49,376 nucleotides of DNA from Pseudoflavonifractor phocaeensis (GTDB lineage Bacteria > Bacillota > Clostridia > Oscillospirales > Oscillospiraceae), in NCBI RefSeq assembly GCF_016901955.1, contig NZ_JACJLC010000018.1:1-49376 (forward strand), read 5' to 3'. Shown one piece after another: positions 2,061 to 49,376 of this stretch (positions are counted from its first letter, which is position 1; every line of letters begins with the position of its first letter). The notes under the pieces were generated by a model. The model was not told where the DNA came from and ran no database searches. It saw nothing but the letters and a program-made list of their open reading frames with translations. Position numbers and translations under genes: made by a program.

Positions 2061-2080
2061 GGGATTGTATTCCATATTAC

Positions 2081-2195
2081 CTTCCCCCCACAGGGGGGAA
2101 GGTGGCCCGCAGGGCCGGATGAGGGGGCCCACGACTGAAAGAACCCCTCATCAGTCAGCCTGCGGCTGACAGCTTCCCCCCACAGGGGGGAAGCT
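2081..2195. repeat. R1 dispersed palindromic element, full copy
   Basis: A 115-bp element between gyrB and gyrA. The left arm holds a CTTCCCCC/GGGGGAAG palindrome, then GGCCCGCAGGGCC, then GGATGAGGGG. After a short centre the right arm runs CCCCTCATC, then GTCAGCCTGCGGCTGAC, then a second CTTCCCCC/GGGGGAAG palindrome. The whole is an imperfect inverted repeat made of smaller hairpins. Related copies lie at 8138-8252 (full), 5117-5613 (with a gene inside), and 28648, 29698, 40146, 40284 and 49331 (single arms). Confidence 0.9.
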
Positions 2196-5100: not shown

Positions 5101-5116
5101 TATAATACCGCTTGAC

Positions 5117-5613
5117 CTTCCCCCCACAGGGGGGAAGGTGGCCCGCAGGGCCGGATGAGGGGGCGTATGACATGCGTTTATGGATGAAAAGAAACGCCCA
5201 GTGTCTGAGAAAAAACGCCACCAAAGAAGAAAACAAGTTGTGGTATCAGTTTTTGCGTACCTATCCCATCCAATTTCGGCGGCAGGTGGTATTTGGCTCT
5301 TATATCCTGGATTTCTACTGTGCCTCTGCCAAGCTGGCGGTAGAGCTGGACGGCTCCCAGCATTTTGAGGAGGCGGGACAGGAAGAGGATCGAACCCGCA
5401 CGGCGTTTTTGAGCCAGAACTATGGTATTACCATATTACGGTTTAGCAATTTGGATATTTTACACCGGTTTGAGGGTGTCTGCACGGTCATTGATCAGGA
5501 AGTGGAACGGCGTGCCCCCTCATCCGCCCCCTGCGGGGGCACCACGGGTCAAGGAAAGGTTCCTTTGATCGGACTGTCCCCCGGACAGTCCGACCCCCCT
5601 GTAGGGGGAAGGT
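5117..5613 (+). mobile_element. R1 cassette carrying a DUF559 gene
   Basis: The left R1 arm (5117-5165) and an inverted right arm (5514-5613) bracket a single gene. Left arm order: CTTCCCCC palindrome, GGCCCGCAGGGCC, GGATGAGGGGGC. Right arm order: GCCCCCTCATCCG, CCCCCTGCGGGGG, then about 55 extra bases with their own palindrome (GGACTGTCC/GGACAGTCC), then CCCCCTGTAGGGGGAAGG. The gene-free copies at 2081 and 8138 have the same outer ends with only a few bases between the arms. This is the expected relation between a gene-bearing element and its short non-autonomous derivatives. Target-site duplications are not obvious. Confidence 0.7.
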
Positions 5614-8107: not shown

Positions 8108-8137
8108 GGGTATCATGCTCCTTTTCTGGTATTTGAC

Positions 8138-8252
8138 CTTCGCTCCCCAGGGGAGAAGGTGGCCCGGAGGGCCGGATGAGGGGGCGGAAGTACGGTGCTT
8201 CCCCTCATCAGTCAGCCTGCGGCTGCCAGCTTCCCCCCGGAGGGAGGAAGCT
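8138..8252. repeat. R1 dispersed palindromic element, full copy
   Basis: A second full R1 copy of 115 bp. It has a left arm with GGCCCGGAGGGCC and GGATGAGGGGG, a centre of about 16 bases, and a right arm CCCCTCATCAGTCAGCCTGC followed by a CTTCCCCC/GGAGGGAGGAAG palindrome. It lies inside the untranslated leader of glyS, between the T-box terminator and the start codon. Confidence 0.88.
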
Positions 8253-8410: not shown

Positions 8411-8643
8411 AAAAAACGCCCTGAGCCGGTTTTCGGCTCAGGGCGAACAAAATGTCCGTGGTTCCACCTGAATTCGTACCTGGCTGGTACGCGCTTCATT
8501 CCCGGTAACGGCGGGGGACCGGCGGGGCATTGCCTCCCCGCGGCTTACGGGCGCCTTCCCTCCCCTTTCACCGAAGCCTTGCACCGTCCGGCTCCTCTCT
8601 GAGGCGAAACAAGGGGGTACTCTTCCCGGTCACAGCCTGTAAT
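8411..8643 (-). promoter_or_regulatory. T-box riboswitch (glycine) controlling glyS
   Basis: Read on the minus strand, this has GGGAAGAGTACC and the Stem I loop sequences AGAGAGGAG and GGTGCAAGG. The specifier region is GGGAAGGCGCCC, in which GGC (8553-8555) is a glycine codon. The conserved T-box AGGTGGAACCACGG follows (about 8455-8469). A terminator stem CGCCCTGAGCCG/CGGCTCAGGGCG then ends in a T run (8411-8445). The layout is the compact glyQS type. Uncharged tRNA-Gly should pair with GGC and with the antiterminator and allow read-through into glyS. The specifier was placed by comparison with the known glyQS leader. Confidence 0.92.
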
Positions 8644-14708: not shown

Positions 14709-16517
14709 TTGACCGACCAATCCAAGATCAGAAACTTCTCTATCATTGCCCATATCGACCATGGTAAGTCCACGCTGTCCGACCGGCTCATTGAGCAGTG
14801 CAACGCAGTCACTGCCCGGGAGATGGAGTCCCAGCTGCTGGACAACATGGACCTGGAAAAGGAGCGGGGCATCACCATCAAGGCCCGGGCGGTGCGGCTG
14901 AATTACCAGGCCGCCGATGGGGAGACCTACGAGCTCAACCTCATCGACACCCCCGGCCATGTGGACTTCAACTATGAGGTTTCCCGGTCCCTGGCCGCCT
15001 GCGAGGGGGCAATTCTGGTGGTGGACGCCGCCCAGGGCATTGAGGCCCAGACCCTGGCCAATACCTACCTGGCTATGGAGCACGACCTGGAGATTTTGCC
15101 GGTGGTGAACAAGATCGATCTGCCCGCCGCCGATCCCCAGCGGGTGAAGGACGAGATCGAGAATATCATCGGTATTCCTGCCCAGGATGCCCCGGAGATC
15201 TCCGCCAAGGTGGGCATCAATATCCCCGCCGTGCTGGAGGACATCGTACAAAACATCCCCGCCCCCAAGGGGGACCCCAAGGCTCCCCTGAAGGCTCTCA
15301 TTTTTGACAGCCAGTACGACGCATACCGGGGGGTCATCGTCTACTTCCGGGTCATGGAGGGGACGATCAGGACCGGCATGAACGTGAAGCTGATGGCCTC
15401 CGGCGCCACCTATCAGGTGCTGGAGTGCGGCCACCTGCTCCCCCTGGGCATGGAGCCCTGCAAGGAGCTCATCGCCGGGGAGGTGGGCTACTTCACCGCC
15501 TCCATCAAGAATGTGAAGGACACCCAGGTGGGTGACACCATCACCGGGGCGGACAACGGGGCAACCGAGCCACTGCCCGGCTACCGCCCCGCACGGGCTA
15601 TGGTGTACTGCGGCATTTACACCGAGGACGGCTCCAAGTACCCCGACCTGCGGGACGCTCTGGAGAAGCTCCAGCTCAACGACGCCTCTCTGTCTTTTGA
15701 GCCGGAATCCTCTGTGGCCCTGGGGTTTGGCTTCCGCTGCGGCTTTTTGGGGATGCTCCACATGGAGATCATCCAGGAGCGGCTGGAGCGGGAGTTCGAC
15801 CTGGATCTCATCACCACCCTGCCCTCCGTCATCTACCGGATCACCAAGACCGATGGCTCGGTGGTGATGGTGGATAACCCCCACAACTACCCCGACCCCG
15901 CCGTCATCGAAATGGCGGAGGAGCCCTACGCCAAGGTGTCCATCGTCACGCCCCCTGACTACGTGGGCAACATCATGCCCATGTGCCAGGAGCGCCGGGG
16001 AGAGTACAAGGACATGCAGTATCTGGACACCAACCTGGTAGAACTCCACTACTCCATGCCCCTGGGAGAGATCATCTACGACTTCTTCGACACCCTGAAG
16101 GCCCGCACCAAGGGCTACGCCTCCCTGGACTACGAGATGGACCGCTATGAGCCTTCCGAGCTGGTGAAGGTAGACATGCTCCTCAACGGCGACCAGGTGG
16201 ACGCCCTCTCCTTCATCGCCCACAAGGACAAGGCCTATCCCCGGGCCCGGCGGCTGTGCGAAAAGCTGAAGGAGAATATCCCCCGCCAGCTCTTTGAGGT
16301 GCCGGTGCAGGCCGCCATCGGCGGCAAGATCATTGCCCGGGAAACCGTCAAGGCCATGCGGAAGGACGTGCTGGCCAAGTGCTACGGCGGCGACATCACC
16401 CGGAAAAAGAAGCTGCTGGAAAAGCAGAAAGAGGGCAAGAAGAAAATGCGCTCTCTTGGCACCGTGCAGATCCCCACGGAAGCCTTTATGGCGGTGCTCA
16501 AGCTGGACGAGGAATAA
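14709..16517 (+). CDS. lepA: Elongation factor 4 (LepA), ribosome back-translocase
   Basis: Translational GTPase that acts on stalled or mis-translocated ribosomes. 602 residues. G-domain motifs: [14 protein letters not shown] (G1), RGITI (G2), DTPGHVDF (G3), [10 protein letters not shown] (G4). The EF4-specific C-terminal domain ends at [20 protein letters not shown] then VLKLDEE. The start is TTG 14709, seven bases after GGGAGG. The last 28 codons (16433-16517) are present again 252 bases downstream (16685-16769) with ten codon differences, nine of them silent. The intact gene's own end is the less GC-rich copy, so its C-terminal coding segment may have been brought in by the element that follows. 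Confidence 0.97.
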
Positions 16518-16684
16518 ACGGAACGTATCTTTTCTTACCCTCTGGGCCCCGCAAGGCGGGGCGGCGCTTGCGCCGTACAAGCGTTTTGGGCAGGGCTCAA
16601 AACCTTGGCGCAGGCGGAATTCACTTCCGCCGAGCATGTCAAATAAAAATGGGGTCCCCACAAAGGGCAAGCCCTTTGTGGGGC
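16518..16684 (+). mobile_element. R3 element after lepA
   Basis: 167 bases between two copies of the lepA 3' end. Conserved parts, in order: a CCCCGC/GCGGGG hairpin; a CGGCGC/GCGCCG hairpin; a variable segment; GGCGGAA-TTCAC-TTCCGCC (16613-16631); an A-rich linker; and GGGGT followed by a CCCCACAAAGGG/CCCTTTGTGGGG hairpin (16656-16683). The second lepA end starts one base after the last hairpin. The same parts in the same order occur after mgsA and after the nucleoside permease gene. No protein-coding potential is apparent. Confidence 0.75.
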
Positions 16685-28532: not shown

Positions 28533-28647
28533 GTGAAATCAACTCCAAATTATAAGATCAAAGGGGGTGCGGATATCAACAAATGTGGGCGGGTGGGGGC
28601 CGGCGGCTTTATGGGGCGCGACGACCCCGGTGCGCCATGGTGCAGTT

Positions 28648-28694
28648 CCCCTCATCCGGCCCTGCGGGCCACCTTCCCCCCTGAGGGGGGAAGG
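28648..28694. repeat. R1 half element
   Basis: CCCCTCATCCGGCCCTGCGG then GCCACCTTCCCCC/GGGGGGAAGG: a single right-hand R1 arm upstream of aspS, with no matching left arm. Confidence 0.85.
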
Positions 28695-28733
28695 TCAGGA
28701 CGGGCGCAGTTTGTCAGTGGGGCGGCCTGGACC

Positions 28734-29663: not shown

Positions 29664-29697
29664 CAAAGGTTCCTCCTTGTCAGTCAATGGGGGCGGG

Positions 29698-29745
29698 CCC
29701 CCTCATCCGGCCCTTCGGGCCACCTTCCCTCGTGTGGGGGAAGGT
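29698..29745. repeat. R1 half element
   Basis: CCCCCTCATCCGGCCCTTCG, GGCCACC, then TTCCCTCGTGTGGGGGAAGG. A right-hand arm in the same orientation as the one at 28648. Together the two flank the small SLH gene as direct, not inverted, copies. Confidence 0.85.
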
Positions 29746-31480: not shown

Positions 31481-31503
31481 GGTATGATGGCTGGGCCTTC
31501 CCC

Positions 31504-31564
31504 TTACGCGGTAAAGGGCTTGGTCTTGGGGTTGATGATGTCGCGCCAGTCCAAATCCCCCCGC
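31504..31564 (-). pseudogene. Stranded second copy of the mgsA 3' end
   Basis: Encodes GDLDWRDIINPKTKPFTA and a TAA stop. It is identical in protein sequence to the end of MgsA (31714-31774), but six codons and the stop differ: CGC for AGA, GAC for GAT, ATC for ATT, AAG for AAA twice, GCG for GCC, TAA for TGA. All changes are silent. It has no start codon. This copy uses the GC-ending codons typical of the genome. Confidence 0.8.
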
Positions 31565-31713
31565 GCCCCACCCGATGCGGAGCATCGTGTGGGGACCCCA
31601 ATGATTGAAATTGCGGCCGTCGGAAGTGAATTCCGCCGGCCTTCGGCGGCAAGAGCCGCCGCGCCGCCTAAGGCGGCGTGCTGGAGCGGGGGGAAGGATG
31701 CTGCCGTCTTGTC
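31565..31713 (-). mobile_element. R3 element after mgsA
   Basis: 149 bases between the two mgsA ends. In mgsA direction: GCCGCCTTAGGCGGC hairpin, GGCGGC-TCTT-GCCGCC hairpin, CGGCGGAA-TTCAC-TTCCGACGG, linker GCCGCAATTTCAATCATT, then GGGGT and CCCCACACGATG/CATCGGGTGGGG (31566-31594). Same order of parts as the lepA and permease copies, with different stem sequences that still pair. Confidence 0.75.
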
Positions 31714-32130
31714 TCAGGCGGTAAAGGGTTTGGTTTTGGGGTTAATGATATCTCTCCAGTCCAAATCCCCCCGCTCCAGACCGTGGATGAGCATCTCGGC
31801 GGTGGCCACGTTGGTGGCCACGGGGATATTGTACTGGTCGCACAGGCGGGTGATATACTTCAGGTCGGAGTCCAGGTCGTTGGACTGGGGATCGGAGAAG
31901 AACAACACCATGTCGATCTCGTTGTAGGCGATCCGGGCGCCGATCTGCTGGCTGCCCCCGTGCTCGTGGGAGAGGAAAAGCTGTACGGGCAGACCGGTGG
32001 CTTCGGCCACCAGACGACCTGTCGTGTTGGTGGCACAGATCGTATGCTTGGACAGGATGCCGCAGTAGGCAATGCAGAATTGGACCATCAGTTCCTTTTT
32101 GCGATCATGGCTCATCAACGCGATATTCAT
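31714..32130 (-). CDS. mgsA: Methylglyoxal synthase
   Basis: Converts dihydroxyacetone phosphate to methylglyoxal and phosphate, a bypass of lower glycolysis under phosphate limitation. 138 residues. Phosphate-binding ATNTTGRLV near 33-41, then LFLSHEHGGSQQIGARI; catalytic Asp in MVLFFSDPQSNDLDSDL near 80; and CDQYNIPVATNVATAEMLI near 98-116 with the second Asp. ATG 32130 follows GAGAGG. Its last 20 codons recur downstream beyond an R3 element with only silent changes. The gene's own end has less GC at third positions (AGA, GAT, ATT, AAA, AAA) than the downstream copy. minD lies upstream on the same strand. Confidence 0.95.
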   Translation of the reverse strand: MNIALMSHDRKKELMVQFCIAYCGILSKHTICATNTTGRLVAEATGLPVQLFLSHEHGGSQQIGARIAYNEIDMVLFFSDPQSNDLDSDLKYITRLCDQYNIPVATNVATAEMLIHGLERGDLDWRDIINPKTKPFTA

Positions 32131-40028: not shown

Positions 40029-40145
40029 GGCTTTTTCCCCCTTACTTCCCGGTATTTTATACAATATTATCATAACCCATCTGTTTCTGGATGTAAATGG
40101 GAAGTTGGATTCGGGGGGAGACTGTGGGCATCTGCTCTGACGCGG

Positions 40146-40200
40146 GGCCCCCTCATCCGCCCCCTGCGGGGGCACCTTCCCCCCTGAGGGGGGAAGGTCT
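40146..40200. repeat. R1 half element
   Basis: GGCCCCCTCATCCGCCCCCT, then GCGGGGGCACC, then CCTTCCCCCC/GGGGGGAAGG. A single right-hand arm upstream of the Spo0A-like gene. Confidence 0.87.
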
Positions 40201-40243: not shown

Positions 40244-40283
40244 CGGTACCGGTAACCGCTCCGTTGTCGATGAACAGGCCGTT

Positions 40284-40335
40284 CCCCTCATCCGCCTCCT
40301 GCGGGGGCACCTTCCCCCCTGAGGGGGGGAAGGTT
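40284..40335. repeat. R1 half element
   Basis: CCCCTCATCCGCCTCCTGCG, GGGGCACC, then CTTCCCCCC/GGGGGGGAAGG. A right-hand arm, a direct repeat of the one at 40146, with which it flanks an R2 unit. Confidence 0.87.
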
Positions 40336-46951: not shown

Positions 46952-48032
46952 ACAGCACAGTCCCCTGATCCGCCTGGCCAAGCGGGACGCCATGCCCCGG
47001 GGCCAGGTGTGGGCCATTCGGGGGGCCTCCTTTGTGGCGGCCTTTCTGATCAGCGCCCTGATCTTCCTGCTCATGGGCCACAGCCCCGTGGAGGCCTACG
47101 GCACCATGATCAGCGGCTCCCTGGGCAAGCCCACCGCCATCCGGCAGACGGTGCGCATCGCCGTCCCCCTGCTGGGCACCGCCCTGGCCATTGCCCCCTG
47201 CTTCAAAATGCGGTTCTGGAACATCGGCGCCGAGGGTCAGATCACCGCCGGCGCTGTGGGAGCCAGCTACTTCGCCCTGTTCTGGGCGGATAAGCTGCCC
47301 GGCCCCGCCCTGCTGGTGGTCATGGCTCTGGCCGGCGCCATCTGCGGCGGCCTGTGGGGCCTGGTGCCCGCCTTCTTCAAGGCCAAGTGGGGCACCAACG
47401 AGACCCTGTTTACCCTGATGATGAACTATATCATGATCGGCGTGGTGAAATGGCTCCAGGGCGGCCCCTGGGAGGGCCGGCCCGGTTCCCAGATCATCCC
47501 CCAGTTCGACTCCGCCGCCGTGCTGCCCAAGGTGCTGGGGGTCCACTGCGGCTGGATCATCGTCCTCATCATGACGGTGGCTATGTTCATCTATATGAAG
47601 TACACCAAGCAGGGCTATGAGATCGCCGTCATCGGCGAGAGCGAGAACACCGCCCGGTACGCCGGCATGAACGTGGGCAGGATCATCATGCGCACCATGT
47701 TCCTGTCCGGGGCCATGGCGGGCCTGGTGGGCTTCATCGTGGCCTCCGGCGCGGACAACACCCTTCATTCCGGAGTGGCCGCCGGGGTGGGCTTTACCGC
47801 CATTACCGTGGCCTGGCTGGCCCAGCTCAATCCCTTTGCCATGATCGCCATCTCTATGCTGCTGGGCGTCCTGGAAAAGGGAGCCGACACGTTGCAGACC
47901 CGGCTGGAGGTGCCCGCCTCCATCTCGGATATCATCACCGGCATCTTCTTGTTCTGTATGCTGGGGTGTGAGTTCTTCATCAACTACCGGCTGATCCTCC
48001 GGGGCGGCCATAAGGAGGTGGCCAAGCAATGA
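46944..48032 (+). CDS. ABC transporter permease, nucleoside type (NupP-like)
   Basis: Membrane subunit of the nucleoside importer. 362 residues with eight to nine hydrophobic helices: RGASFVAAFLISALIFLLMG near 25-45, VRIAVPLLGTALAIAPCFKM near 70, and the BPD_transp_2 signature FWNIGAEGQITAGAVGASYF near 92-112. GTNETLFTLMMNYIMIGVVK lies near 150, and GESENTARYAGMNVGRIIMR (the ATPase-contacting loop) near 232. ATG 46944 lies eight bases inside the ATPase gene, with GGAGGGAG upstream. It ends overlapping the second permease gene (ATGA). The two permeases should form a heterodimer. Confidence 0.93.
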   Translation: MHEQHSPLIRLAKRDAMPRGQVWAIRGASFVAAFLISALIFLLMGHSPVEAYGTMISGSLGKPTAIRQTVRIAVPLLGTALAIAPCFKMRFWNIGAEGQITAGAVGASYFALFWADKLPGPALLVVMALAGAICGGLWGLVPAFFKAKWGTNETLFTLMMNYIMIGVVKWLQGGPWEGRPGSQIIPQFDSAAVLPKVLGVHCGWIIVLIMTVAMFIYMKYTKQGYEIAVIGESENTARYAGMNVGRIIMRTMFLSGAMAGLVGFIVASGADNTLHSGVAAGVGFTAITVAWLAQLNPFAMIAISMLLGVLEKGADTLQTRLEVPASISDIITGIFLFCMLGCEFFINYRLILRGGHKEVAKQ

Positions 48033-49018
48033 GTATCAATCAAAATGCCGTGCTGCTGCTCATCATGGCCGCCGTGCTCAACGGCGTGCCTCTGCTCTAT
48101 GGTACCCTGGGCGAGATCCTGTCGGAAAAGGCGGGCAACCTGAACCTGGGCGTGGAGGGCATGATGTTCATGGGTGGGGCCATGGGCCTGGGAGCCGCCT
48201 TCTACTATGAGGCCGCCGGCGGCACCATCGGGGTGCTGGCCGTTTTCCTGGCTCTCTTCTTTGCCTTCCTGGGCGGCGCCATCGGAGCCCTCATCTACGC
48301 CTTCCTCACCATTACCCTCCGGGCCAACCAGAACGTCACCGGTCTTGCCCTGGCCATCTTCGGCACCGGCGGAGGCCAGTTCATCGGCGAGTATATGCGG
48401 GTGACCTCCGGGGGCTATGTGGCCGTCAGCAACGCCCTCAAGGCAGTGTTCCTCAACTCCCCCTTCCCGGCGGCCCTTCAGCAGCTGCCGGTGGTGGGGC
48501 CCCTGCTCTTCGGCCACAGTGTGTTCCTCTACCTGGGCGTGATCCTGGCGGTGGGAATGCACCTCTTCCTCAAACGCACCCGGGCGGGGCTGTCCCTCCG
48601 GGCGGTGGGCGAATCCCCCGCCACCGCCGACGCCGCCGGTATCAACGTGACCCGGTATAAATACCTGGCCACCGTGCTGGGGGGCGGCATCTCCGCCATC
48701 GGCGGCATGGTGTATATCATGACCATCGCCAGCTGTGTGTGGAACCACGAGGCCCTCTCCGGCGAGGGCTGGCTGGCCGTGGCCCTGGTCATCTTCTGCC
48801 TGTGGCGGCCCCTTAACGCCGTCTGGGGCTCCATTCTCTTTGGAGCCCTGATGATCCTCTACCAGCGGCTCCATTTGGGCTTCATTCCCGACGAGCTGTA
48901 CAAGATTTTGCCCTACGTGGTCACCGTTATCGTGCTCATCTTTACCTCCCTGCGCAACAGCAAGGATAAGCAGCCCCCCAACTCTTTGGGGCTGGCCTAT
49001 TTCAGGGAAGAAAGGTAA
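48029..49018 (+). CDS. ABC transporter permease, nucleoside type (NupQ-like)
   Basis: Second membrane subunit. 329 residues. N terminus with AVLLLIMAAVLNGVPLLYGT, the signature LGEILSEKAGNLNLGVEGMM near 28-47 (the NupQ/YufQ hallmark), LRANQNVTGLALAIFGTGGG near 92, the coupling loop AVGESPATADAAGINVTRYK near 192, and LWRPLNAVWGSILFGALMIL near 257. It starts at ATG 48029, overlapping the previous stop. The last 15 codons recur at 49170-49219 beyond an R3 element. Four codons and the stop differ, all silently. The gene's own end (TAT, AGG, GAA, AGG, TAA) looks less like local codon use than the stranded copy. Confidence 0.93.
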   Translation: MSINQNAVLLLIMAAVLNGVPLLYGTLGEILSEKAGNLNLGVEGMMFMGGAMGLGAAFYYEAAGGTIGVLAVFLALFFAFLGGAIGALIYAFLTITLRANQNVTGLALAIFGTGGGQFIGEYMRVTSGGYVAVSNALKAVFLNSPFPAALQQLPVVGPLLFGHSVFLYLGVILAVGMHLFLKRTRAGLSLRAVGESPATADAAGINVTRYKYLATVLGGGISAIGGMVYIMTIASCVWNHEALSGEGWLAVALVIFCLWRPLNAVWGSILFGALMILYQRLHLGFIPDELYKILPYVVTVIVLIFTSLRNSKDKQPPNSLGLAYFREER

Positions 49019-49169
49019 GAAAAGGGGAAGCCCTCTTTGGAAAAAGGGGCTGCTGATCCGGGACCCGCCGCAGGCGGGACGCGCTTTTGCGCGCAGGCCG
49101 GGGGGATTCACTTCCCCCGGCCGCAAATGGAAATACGGGGCCCCCACGGGACCAGTCCCGTGGGGAAAC
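49019..49169 (+). mobile_element. R3 element after the nucleoside permease gene
   Basis: 151 bases between the two gene ends. Parts, in order: CCCGCCGCAGGCGGG hairpin; CGCGCTTTTGCGCG hairpin; GGCCGGGGGGA-TTCAC-TTCCCCCGGCC (49097-49122); linker GCAAATGGAAATA; then GGGGCCCCCACGGGAC/GTCCCGTGGGG (49142-49165). The copied gene end begins four bases later. The TTCAC loop and the CCCCAC/GTGGGG base of the last hairpin match the other two R3 copies. Confidence 0.75.
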
Positions 49170-49219
49170 AAGCAGCCCCCAACTCTTTGGGGCTGGCCTA
49201 CTTCAGAGAAGAGCGGTGA
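49170..49219 (+). pseudogene. Stranded second copy of the permease 3' end
   Basis: Encodes PNSLGLAYFREER and a TGA stop, identical in protein to the permease C terminus. TAC replaces TAT, AGA replaces AGG, GAG replaces GAA, CGG replaces AGG and TGA replaces TAA. A one-base difference in a C run marks the edge of the match. A short frame from 49037 runs through the element into this copy, but it has no supporting features. Confidence 0.78.
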
Positions 49220-49330: not shown

Positions 49331-49376
49331 CTTCCCCCGGGGGAAGGTGGCCCGGAGGGCCGGATGAGGGGGGGCG
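49331..49376. repeat. R1 element, left arm, cut by the window edge
   Basis: CTTCCCCCGGGGGAAGG, then GGCCCGGAGGGCC, then GGATGAGGGG: a left R1 arm running off the end of the window. Whether a right arm or a gene follows cannot be seen. Confidence 0.8.

What the first reader, a model, noticed from the sequence alone, without database searches (positions are those of the whole stretch)
31504..31774. mgsA also ends twice around an R3 element, with only silent differences and a swapped stop codon
The last 19 codons of mgsA recur 210 bases downstream. Six codons and the stop differ (TGA in the gene, TAA in the copy) without changing one residue. The gene's own end uses AT-ending codons (AGA, GAT, ATT, AAA, AAA), while the stranded copy uses the GC-ending codons usual here. 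The 149-base spacer has the same hairpin order as the element after lepA. Finding the same arrangement at an unrelated gene excludes a lepA-specific accident.
Basis: partly seen in the sequence, partly recalled or inferred. Interest (0 to 1): 0.88.

Follow-up and report, generated by a model that had tools for sequence, protein, structure and literature searches.

The report
Guide-bearing inserts that mend gene ends
Gut bacteria related to Flavonifractor carry many tiny insertions (about 200 bases) that break the edge of a housekeeping gene but bring a spare copy of that edge, plus a short sequence matching the break point, which suggests an undescribed kind of guide-directed mobile DNA.

Summary
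In detail: mgsA's last 61 nt recur 210 nt downstream around a 149-nt structured spacer, with only silent differences and a swapped stop.

It belongs to a family. A covariance model of the spacer's 3' part hits all 20 genomes of the genus and 18 of 79 other relatives; Rfam has no gathering-level match in the window's copies. In the genus 66 of 71 examined copies sit between two copies of adjoining sequence, typically a gene edge.

Each unit is [functional edge copy]-[guide]-[hairpin scaffold]-[displaced native edge].

Empty sites exist in relatives. Edge copy and guide belong together; scaffolds group by site, not by genome. Best reading: a non-autonomous, homing-like element that regenerates its target as integrative islands do, with guide pairing defining the site. 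None of five searched enzyme families tracks it; mobility, guide function and enzyme are inferred, not shown.

The parts
31714..32130 (-). mgsA, methylglyoxal synthase, the interrupted host gene
   Evidence: NCBIfam NF003559 at 132 bits, cut-off 84
31714..31774 (-). Left copy: the functional mgsA end (TGA stop), the first part of the unit; junction between 31775 and 31774
   Evidence: Direct repeat; synonymous-only differences
31681..31694 (-). Guide: 14-nt exact complement of the junction (31766-31779), 5 nt on the left flank and 9 nt in the left copy
   Evidence: Inverted repeat I1, 100%
31565..31680 (-). Scaffold (the R3 element proper); the modelled part R1 is 31565-31641
   Evidence: 80.4 bits with R1; RNA folding z -5.2 for 31500-31790
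31504..31564 (-). Right copy: displaced native mgsA end (TAA stop)
16433..16517 (+). Left copy of the lepA unit (functional lepA end; lepA is 14709-16517)
   Evidence: Direct repeat, 87% over 85 nt; lepA TIGR01393
16530..16544 (+). Guide of the lepA unit (imperfect in this genome)
16545..16684 (+). Scaffold of the lepA unit; R1 part 16609-16684
   Evidence: 77.8 bits
16685..16769 (+). Right copy: displaced native lepA end, followed by a terminator-like hairpin
   Evidence: nearest to the empty lepA of G009
48965..49018 (+). Left copy of a third unit: end of an ABC-transporter permease gene (48029-49018)
   Evidence: Pfam BPD_transp_2
49046..49059 (+). Guide-like segment of the third unit (imperfect)
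49096..49166 (+). Scaffold, R1 part, of the third unit
   Evidence: 65.7 bits
49167..49219 (+). Right copy of the third unit, with a 1-nt deletion that shifts its frame
   Evidence: Sequences; gapped repeat

Best explanation
The R3 element is the scaffold of a non-autonomous, site-specific insertion unit made of [copy of a gene edge]-[guide]-[hairpin scaffold]. Shown: the anatomy, the fixed pairing register of the guide, uninterrupted sites in relatives, site-specific scaffold lineages, and that left copy and guide agree with each other more than with the right copy. Inferred: the unit enters a conserved site in a gene by a guide-directed recombination or homing reaction; its own edge copy regenerates the gene, as integrative islands do at tRNA genes, and pushes the native edge aside. 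The silent differences would then exist because the edge was carried in from another lineage, not because anything was recoded in place. The enzyme is unknown and, if dedicated, acts in trans.
For: Duplication in 66 of 71 copies of the genus and in 56 of 81 further elements in GTDB records. Exact 8-mer complements of the junction start at -4 in 33 of 66 loci, none at -25..-8, shuffled maximum 4; further set 21 of 49, maximum 3. Where left and right copies differ the guide equals left 30, right 7, neither 11. 169 synonymous to 21 non-synonymous left-right codon differences. Right lepA copy of this genome is 5/85 from its closest lepA relative, which is empty; the left copy is 10/85. mgsA site occupied in 7 of 19 genomes with mgsA and uninterrupted in 10. 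Scaffold distance 0.26 at the same site in different genomes, 0.47 at different sites of one genome. Tandem units at one site. Scaffold helices covary: 39 both-side changes against 11.3 shuffled.
Against: No enzyme found, no excised form, no transcription data. G042 and G089 carry at least 49 matches each, and 20 of 24 examined there have no duplication, so the scaffold may do something else. 22 of 66 loci lack an exact guide 8-mer. In mgsA of genomes other than this one the left copy is not consistently more divergent than the right. A co-conversion tract was hinted at for only one genome pair. Right copies keep the same stop position in 36 of 45 loci, which could also mean that they are still used.
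Confidence: 0.58

Rival explanations
1. Intron-like unit: [left copy-guide-scaffold] is removed from RNA, the guide acting like a group I internal guide sequence that pairs with the upstream exon and the start of the downstream exon. Unspliced mRNA uses the left end, spliced mRNA the right end, so both stay conserved.
For: Guide register spans about -5 to +6 or more, the geometry described for group I P1 and P10 (PMC3984707 passages). Removal would restore a full-length gene with the same stop position in 36 of 45 loci.
Against: Antisense units at gene starts have the same design (12 antisense-assigned loci at 6 sites). Right copies can be broken: in-frame stop in lepA of G007, replacements in mgsA of G001, a 1-nt deletion in the third window copy. 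No intron match in Rfam. T at -1 in only 8% of 64 targets and no fixed last G.
Confidence: 0.1
2. Target-site duplication: the element inserts anywhere with a long (about 35-110 nt) duplication, the guide being a snap-back scar copied from the target; only insertions near gene edges survive. The copies diverge later in place.
For: Explains the shared start of both copies and the inverted junction copy in one event. Some pairs are identical or nearly so over their blastn alignment (39, 44 and 46 nt at 100% in L155, L156, L122).
Against: The displaced copy should decay at random, but differences are mainly synonymous in both orientations (169:21 sense; 24:9 in the better-assigned antisense loci). 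In this genome's lepA the displaced copy tracks the empty relative better than the functional copy does. L155 has two different C-termini. Scaffolds group by site.
Confidence: 0.17
3. Retrotransposition: a reverse transcriptase in trans copies a transcript made of gene end, guide and scaffold into the nicked target from the scaffold's 3' end, the upstream side being resolved by homology.
For: The scaffold's 3' end is the precise junction, and the unit begins with mRNA-like gene-end sequence. 7 of 8 searched members of the genus other than carriers without RT do have an RT: G002, G004, G013, G014, G015, G017 and G018.
Against: No RVT_1 match in G000 (99.89% complete), nor in G029, G073, G080, G042, G089; among guide-bearing genomes this exclusion rests on G000 alone. 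Antisense units do not carry an mRNA end.
Confidence: 0.08
4. A fixed regulatory 3' UTR structure (terminator or mRNA stabiliser) that duplicated the gene end by chance recombination.
For: Strong predicted folding (z -5.2 at mgsA; -3.2 at lepA) after stop codons.
Against: Absent from the same genes in many congeners; also antisense at gene starts; does not predict a guide or a displaced edge.
Confidence: 0.05

Closest known systems
Integrative genomic islands that regenerate their target gene (tDNA islands, PMC4383910; the e14/icd case is recalled)
   Same: Element carries the missing gene fragment, integration restores the gene, and a displaced fragment marks the far end (passages).
   Different: Unit of about 210 nt in mgsA with no room for an integrase gene, protein-gene edges at many different sites, a guide complementary to the site.
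Group I introns
   Same: A guide segment pairs with sequence on both sides of the junction (passages); site-specific lineages with presence/absence.
   Different: No Rfam intron match, wrong end bases, both orientations relative to the gene, and a copy of the exon end inside the unit.
REPINs moved by RAYT (Y1) transposases (PMC3116915, passages)
   Same: Short, hairpin-rich, gene-free, many copies, tandem arrays.
   Different: Sits inside gene edges with a duplicated edge; Y1 family not found in several carriers.
IscB/TnpB guide RNAs and IS110 bridge RNAs (recalled; PMC11208160 seen in a listing only)
   Same: Structured RNA-like scaffold next to a guide for a DNA site.
   Different: Enzymes do not track the element; the guide is complementary to the copy carried by the unit itself.
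Diversity-generating retroelements (recalled)
   Same: A gene's 3' end is repeated downstream, next to hairpins.
   Different: No reverse transcriptase match in this genome; differences are mainly synonymous.

Membership tests
Target-regenerating integrative island | Regenerated gene plus displaced fragment at the two ends | tested here: met
   66 of 71 copies in the genus have the duplication; same stop position in 36 of 45
Target-regenerating integrative island | Integrase gene in the element | tested here: not met
   mgsA unit is 210 nt and the left copies found start 38-272 nt upstream of the modelled scaffold (800 nt searched); a trans-acting integrase was not searched for
Group I intron | Conserved ribozyme core | tested here: not met
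   No intron family in the window at gathering scores or in five element loci at E up to 1
Group I intron | Guide pairs with both sides of the 5' junction | tested here: met
Group I intron | U before the 5' splice site, G as last base (recalled) | tested here: not met
   T at -1 in 8% of 64; last bases C, A, G or T
Retroelement (group II intron, DGR, TPRT) | Reverse transcriptase in carriers | tested here: inconclusive
   RVT_1 absent in 6 of 13 carriers searched including G000, present in 7; only G000 of the six is known to bear guides
IscB (OMEGA) | RRXRR nuclease in carriers | tested here: inconclusive
   0 of 20 genomes, but no control genome rang either
TnpB (OMEGA) | PF07282 protein in carriers | tested here: not met
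   Absent from 10 of 13 carriers, among them G000, G004, G015, G017
REPIN/RAYT or IS200-like | Y1 transposase in carriers | tested here: not met
   No match in 8 of 13 carriers, among them G013; weak in G000
IS110 bridge-RNA element | IS110 transposase in carriers | tested here: not met
   PF01548 absent from carriers G013, G029, G080, G042, G089; of these only G013 is known to bear guides

The most novel reading that the evidence does not exclude
A categorically new class of minimal mobile element: about 200 nt, no gene of its own, a nucleic-acid guide that spans and defines its insertion site, and a carried replacement edge that keeps the invaded housekeeping gene working. In effect a natural guide-directed homing cassette with built-in rescue, served by a still unknown enzyme.
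Probability: 0.4. Interest if true: 0.93.

Novelty: categorically new. Interest (0 to 1): 0.82.

Why it matters
If the guide does direct insertion, this is a gene-free, programmable insertion system present in many copies in common gut bacteria, which repairs what it breaks, the logic that engineered gene drives with recoded rescue were built to achieve. It would point to an unidentified enzyme. It also creates duplicated gene ends that need an explanation in annotation, and leaves a natural record of gene exchange between species at housekeeping genes.

Tried and rejected
Enzyme hunt in 20 genomes, 13 with the element and 7 without: RVT_1, RRXRR, TnpB, Y1 and IS110 families do not track it. 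Limits: the RRXRR search had no positive control; of the carriers that lack RT only G000 was seen to bear guides, and of those that lack IS110 only G013; G029, G073 and G080 were never inspected for duplications or guides. Integrases and other families were not searched.

Search for an autonomous copy: no duplicated locus holds a long insert, but only 800 nt upstream were searched. Clustering stop-to-stop frames of 180 aa or more in 117 GTDB loci gave small clusters whose leading members, read by eye, look like housekeeping genes or overlapping antisense frames.

INPHARED phages: two unannotated records. Viral contigs: 7 stretches with the exact 19-mer; L056 and L057 match the model; the other five were read by eye, not searched with the model, and show only the hairpin.

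Site motif: only G at -2 (75% of 64) and a weak TGG[AG] before the junction.

Literature: (listings) found nothing describing such elements; no bioRxiv is held, so unpublished or subscription work may exist.

Frames: one search mislabelled six of the seven mgsA loci it kept (one of them kept as sense with a stop). For antisense I quote 12 loci at 6 sites with a GC3 contrast of at least 0.30, tallied by hand (24 synonymous, 9 non-synonymous); the tally printed for all 22 'anti' loci is 27:43. One search gave 158:42 in 44 loci with a cruder choice.

Guide tests: the score-selected comparison (left 50, right 9; own genome 114, other genome 39) is biased towards the left copy, so the anchored test is relied on. 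The first GTDB test (58 of 84, peak 22 of 51) held 3 elements already in hand; without them it is 56 of 81 and 21 of 49. Some loci of that set come from genomes used before. Searches gave nothing useful.

Full report
What is there. mgsA (31714-32130, minus strand) ends twice. Its last 61 nt (31714-31774) recur at 31504-31564, offset 210, with 149 nt between. Six sense codons and the stop differ and no residue does. lepA (14709-16517) shows the same around 16518-16684, and an ABC-permease gene near the window's end a third time (48965-49219).

The spacer is a family. The genome that holds the window (G000, 3.50 Mb; the window is contig C80) has more copies, at genes read here as pgi, deoC, a sepF-like gene (two tandem units), smc, an unidentified gene with two tandem units, ilvN, a crotonase-like gene and, antisense, the start of uvrC. 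Only the window's three genes were named by a profile search; the other names come from reading translations. The 3' part of the spacer is two covarying hairpins (GGCGGAA-TTCAC-TTCCGCC and GGGGTCCCCAC-loop-GTGGGGC): 39 both-side changes against 11.3 in shuffles, 93% of cells paired. In Rfam the window's elements have no gathering-level match; five other element loci at E up to 1 gave two T-boxes elsewhere and one sub-threshold match (M23 RNA, 24 bits against 41, E 0.7) over the 5' hairpins of one scaffold. A covariance model, R1, hits 38 of 99 genomes: all 20 of the genus (8 to 49 matches; 49 is the number scored), 13 others of the family, and 5 of other families, of which G042 and G089 reach 49 and three have 1-3 weak matches.

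Anatomy of the unit. I fetched 80 regions around hits picked by hand from the best in 12 genomes. With 12 earlier loci they gave 109 R1 matches. I analysed 98 and left out 11: repeats of the same place, matches at contig ends, and five second matches (L030, L144, L149, L153, L170). In 72 of 98 the sequence after the scaffold recurs upstream: 66 of 71 in the genus, 4 of 24 in G042 and G089, 2 of 3 in phage contigs. A few of the 72 are second units of tandem arrays, or repeats between scaffolds (L056, L137). Three of the five genus loci without a blastn hit show a short or eroded copy (L095, L118, L164). The copy that completes the gene lies on the guide side; it reaches the stop codon 34-106 nt past the junction in 44 sense loci, or the start codon and ribosome-binding site in the antisense case read in detail, uvrC. 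Some copies include the gene's terminator (L100; L016).

The guide. Between the functional copy and the scaffold lies a segment complementary to the insertion point (0 is the first base of the copy). Without preselection, exact 8-mer complements start at -4 in 33 of 66 loci, at no position from -25 to -8, and beyond +17 only once each at +27 and +33; no position exceeds 4 in 200 shuffles. 44 of 66 loci and 24 of 35 sites have one starting between -6 and +1; 22 loci have none. In GTDB records 90 of 103 model matches were tested; after removing 6 with short flanks and 3 elements already in hand, 56 of 81 have the duplication and, of 49 testable, the peak is 21 at -4 to -2, shuffled maximum 3. 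Among 44 loci selected for a guide, at least 40 pair at each position from -3 to +3, decaying to background by about +11.

Which copy is native. In lepA the displaced copy of this genome differs from its closest lepA relative, G009, which is empty, at 5/85, and the functional copy at 10/85. In mgsA the displaced copy is 2/59 from its nearest sequence and the functional copy 6/59, although 100 nt of gene body just upstream differ by only 4-7 from six relatives. In the other mgsA units neither copy is consistently the more divergent. In 39 sense-assigned loci there are 169 synonymous and 21 non-synonymous codon differences in 786 codons. Displaced copies are not always kept intact: an in-frame stop in lepA of G007, two replacements in mgsA of G001, a 1-nt deletion in the third window copy. 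The simplest reading is that the two ends diverged in different lineages while both were functional, and met at insertion. Where left and right differ, the guide agrees with left 30 times, right 7, neither 11, in 33 loci: left copy, guide and scaffold behave as one block.

Mobility. Of 19 genomes with mgsA, 7 carry the unit at the identical position (in G004 with a shortened scaffold), G007 has a remnant, 10 are uninterrupted, and G012 cannot be judged because its contig ends. Of 18 lepA loci read, five carry it (G000, G012, G002, G007, G001), G013 has a remnant, and G006, G008 and G013 carry another insert family. Scaffolds are closer at the same site in different genomes (mean 0.26, 65 pairs) than at different sites in one genome (0.47, 242 pairs); the nearest neighbour in another genome is at the same site in 35 of 50 (one of its site clusters falsely groups second units of tandem arrays). 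This fits site-specific lineages with gain and loss, as in homing elements; vertical descent with loss and conversion is not excluded. A possible co-conversion tract upstream of the lepA site was seen between G000 and G012 only (7 differences in 240 nt).

Mechanism. The arrangement equals that of integrative islands, whose attP carries the missing gene fragment, so that integration restores the gene and a displaced fragment marks the far end (passages of PMC4383910). What is added is the guide, which pairs with both sides of the empty site much as a group I internal guide sequence pairs with both exons (passages of PMC3984707), and the absence of any gene. An RNA intron is unlikely: antisense units have the same design, displaced copies can be broken, no intron core matches, and the end bases do not fit. 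Of five enzyme families none tracks the element, with the limits given under Tried and rejected. Guide function, mobility and a trans-acting enzyme are inferred, not shown. On re-checking I raised the odds of a retro route (RT absence in guide-bearing genomes rests on G000 alone) and lowered the main reading slightly, to 0.58.

Limits. One assembly per species, many of them fragmented; frames assigned automatically and partly wrong; loci picked from the best-scoring hits; no bench data. No publication describing the element was found (listings); passages were read in three papers.

Noticed in passing
L013, L016/L017, L154, L161: A second insert family (GGAGGAGRCGCAAGGGARCG ... GCGGACTTTGSGSCGACGA) sits at gene ends next to R3 units; 3 of 4 copies found by pattern lie between duplicated gene ends. 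No guide was recognised by eye.
   Followed up: partly
lepA loci L314 (G006), L320 (G008), L322 (G013); similar insert right of the units in L103 and L122: A third insert family (GCATCCGCAARGTTCCCTCCTCGCGG ... CTTAACGCTGCG at lepA) also duplicates the last codons of lepA; in G013 it sits beside the remnant of an R3 unit.
   Followed up: no
G042 and G089 (L131-L150): Two genomes of another family in the order carry at least 49 matches each; 20 of 24 examined have no duplication and no guide was seen, so the scaffold may have another way of life there.
   Followed up: partly
L056, L057 (viral contigs): The element occurs in phage contigs; in L057 a phage gene end is duplicated (95% over 149 nt), and by eye a 14-nt complement of the site lies at and after the stop.
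   Followed up: partly
L054, L055, L058, L059, L060 (viral contigs): The exact hairpin GGCGGAATTCACTTCCGCC also lies next to or between genes of unrelated phages without the rest of the scaffold.
   Followed up: no
L002 and L003 (G000 C267 and C283): The assembly breaks inside what looks like a tandem array of units at pgi; such arrays may fragment assemblies.
   Followed up: no
window 2079-2135, 5115-5171, 8136-8192, 28646-28697, 29690-29740, 40142-40192, 40277-40327, 49331-49372: A separate REP-like hairpin repeat (CCCCTCATCCGGCCCTGCGGGCCACCTTCCCCC) occurs throughout the window in both orientations.
   Followed up: no
window 8436-8642, minus strand: T-box leader (Rfam RF00230, 102 bits).
   Followed up: no
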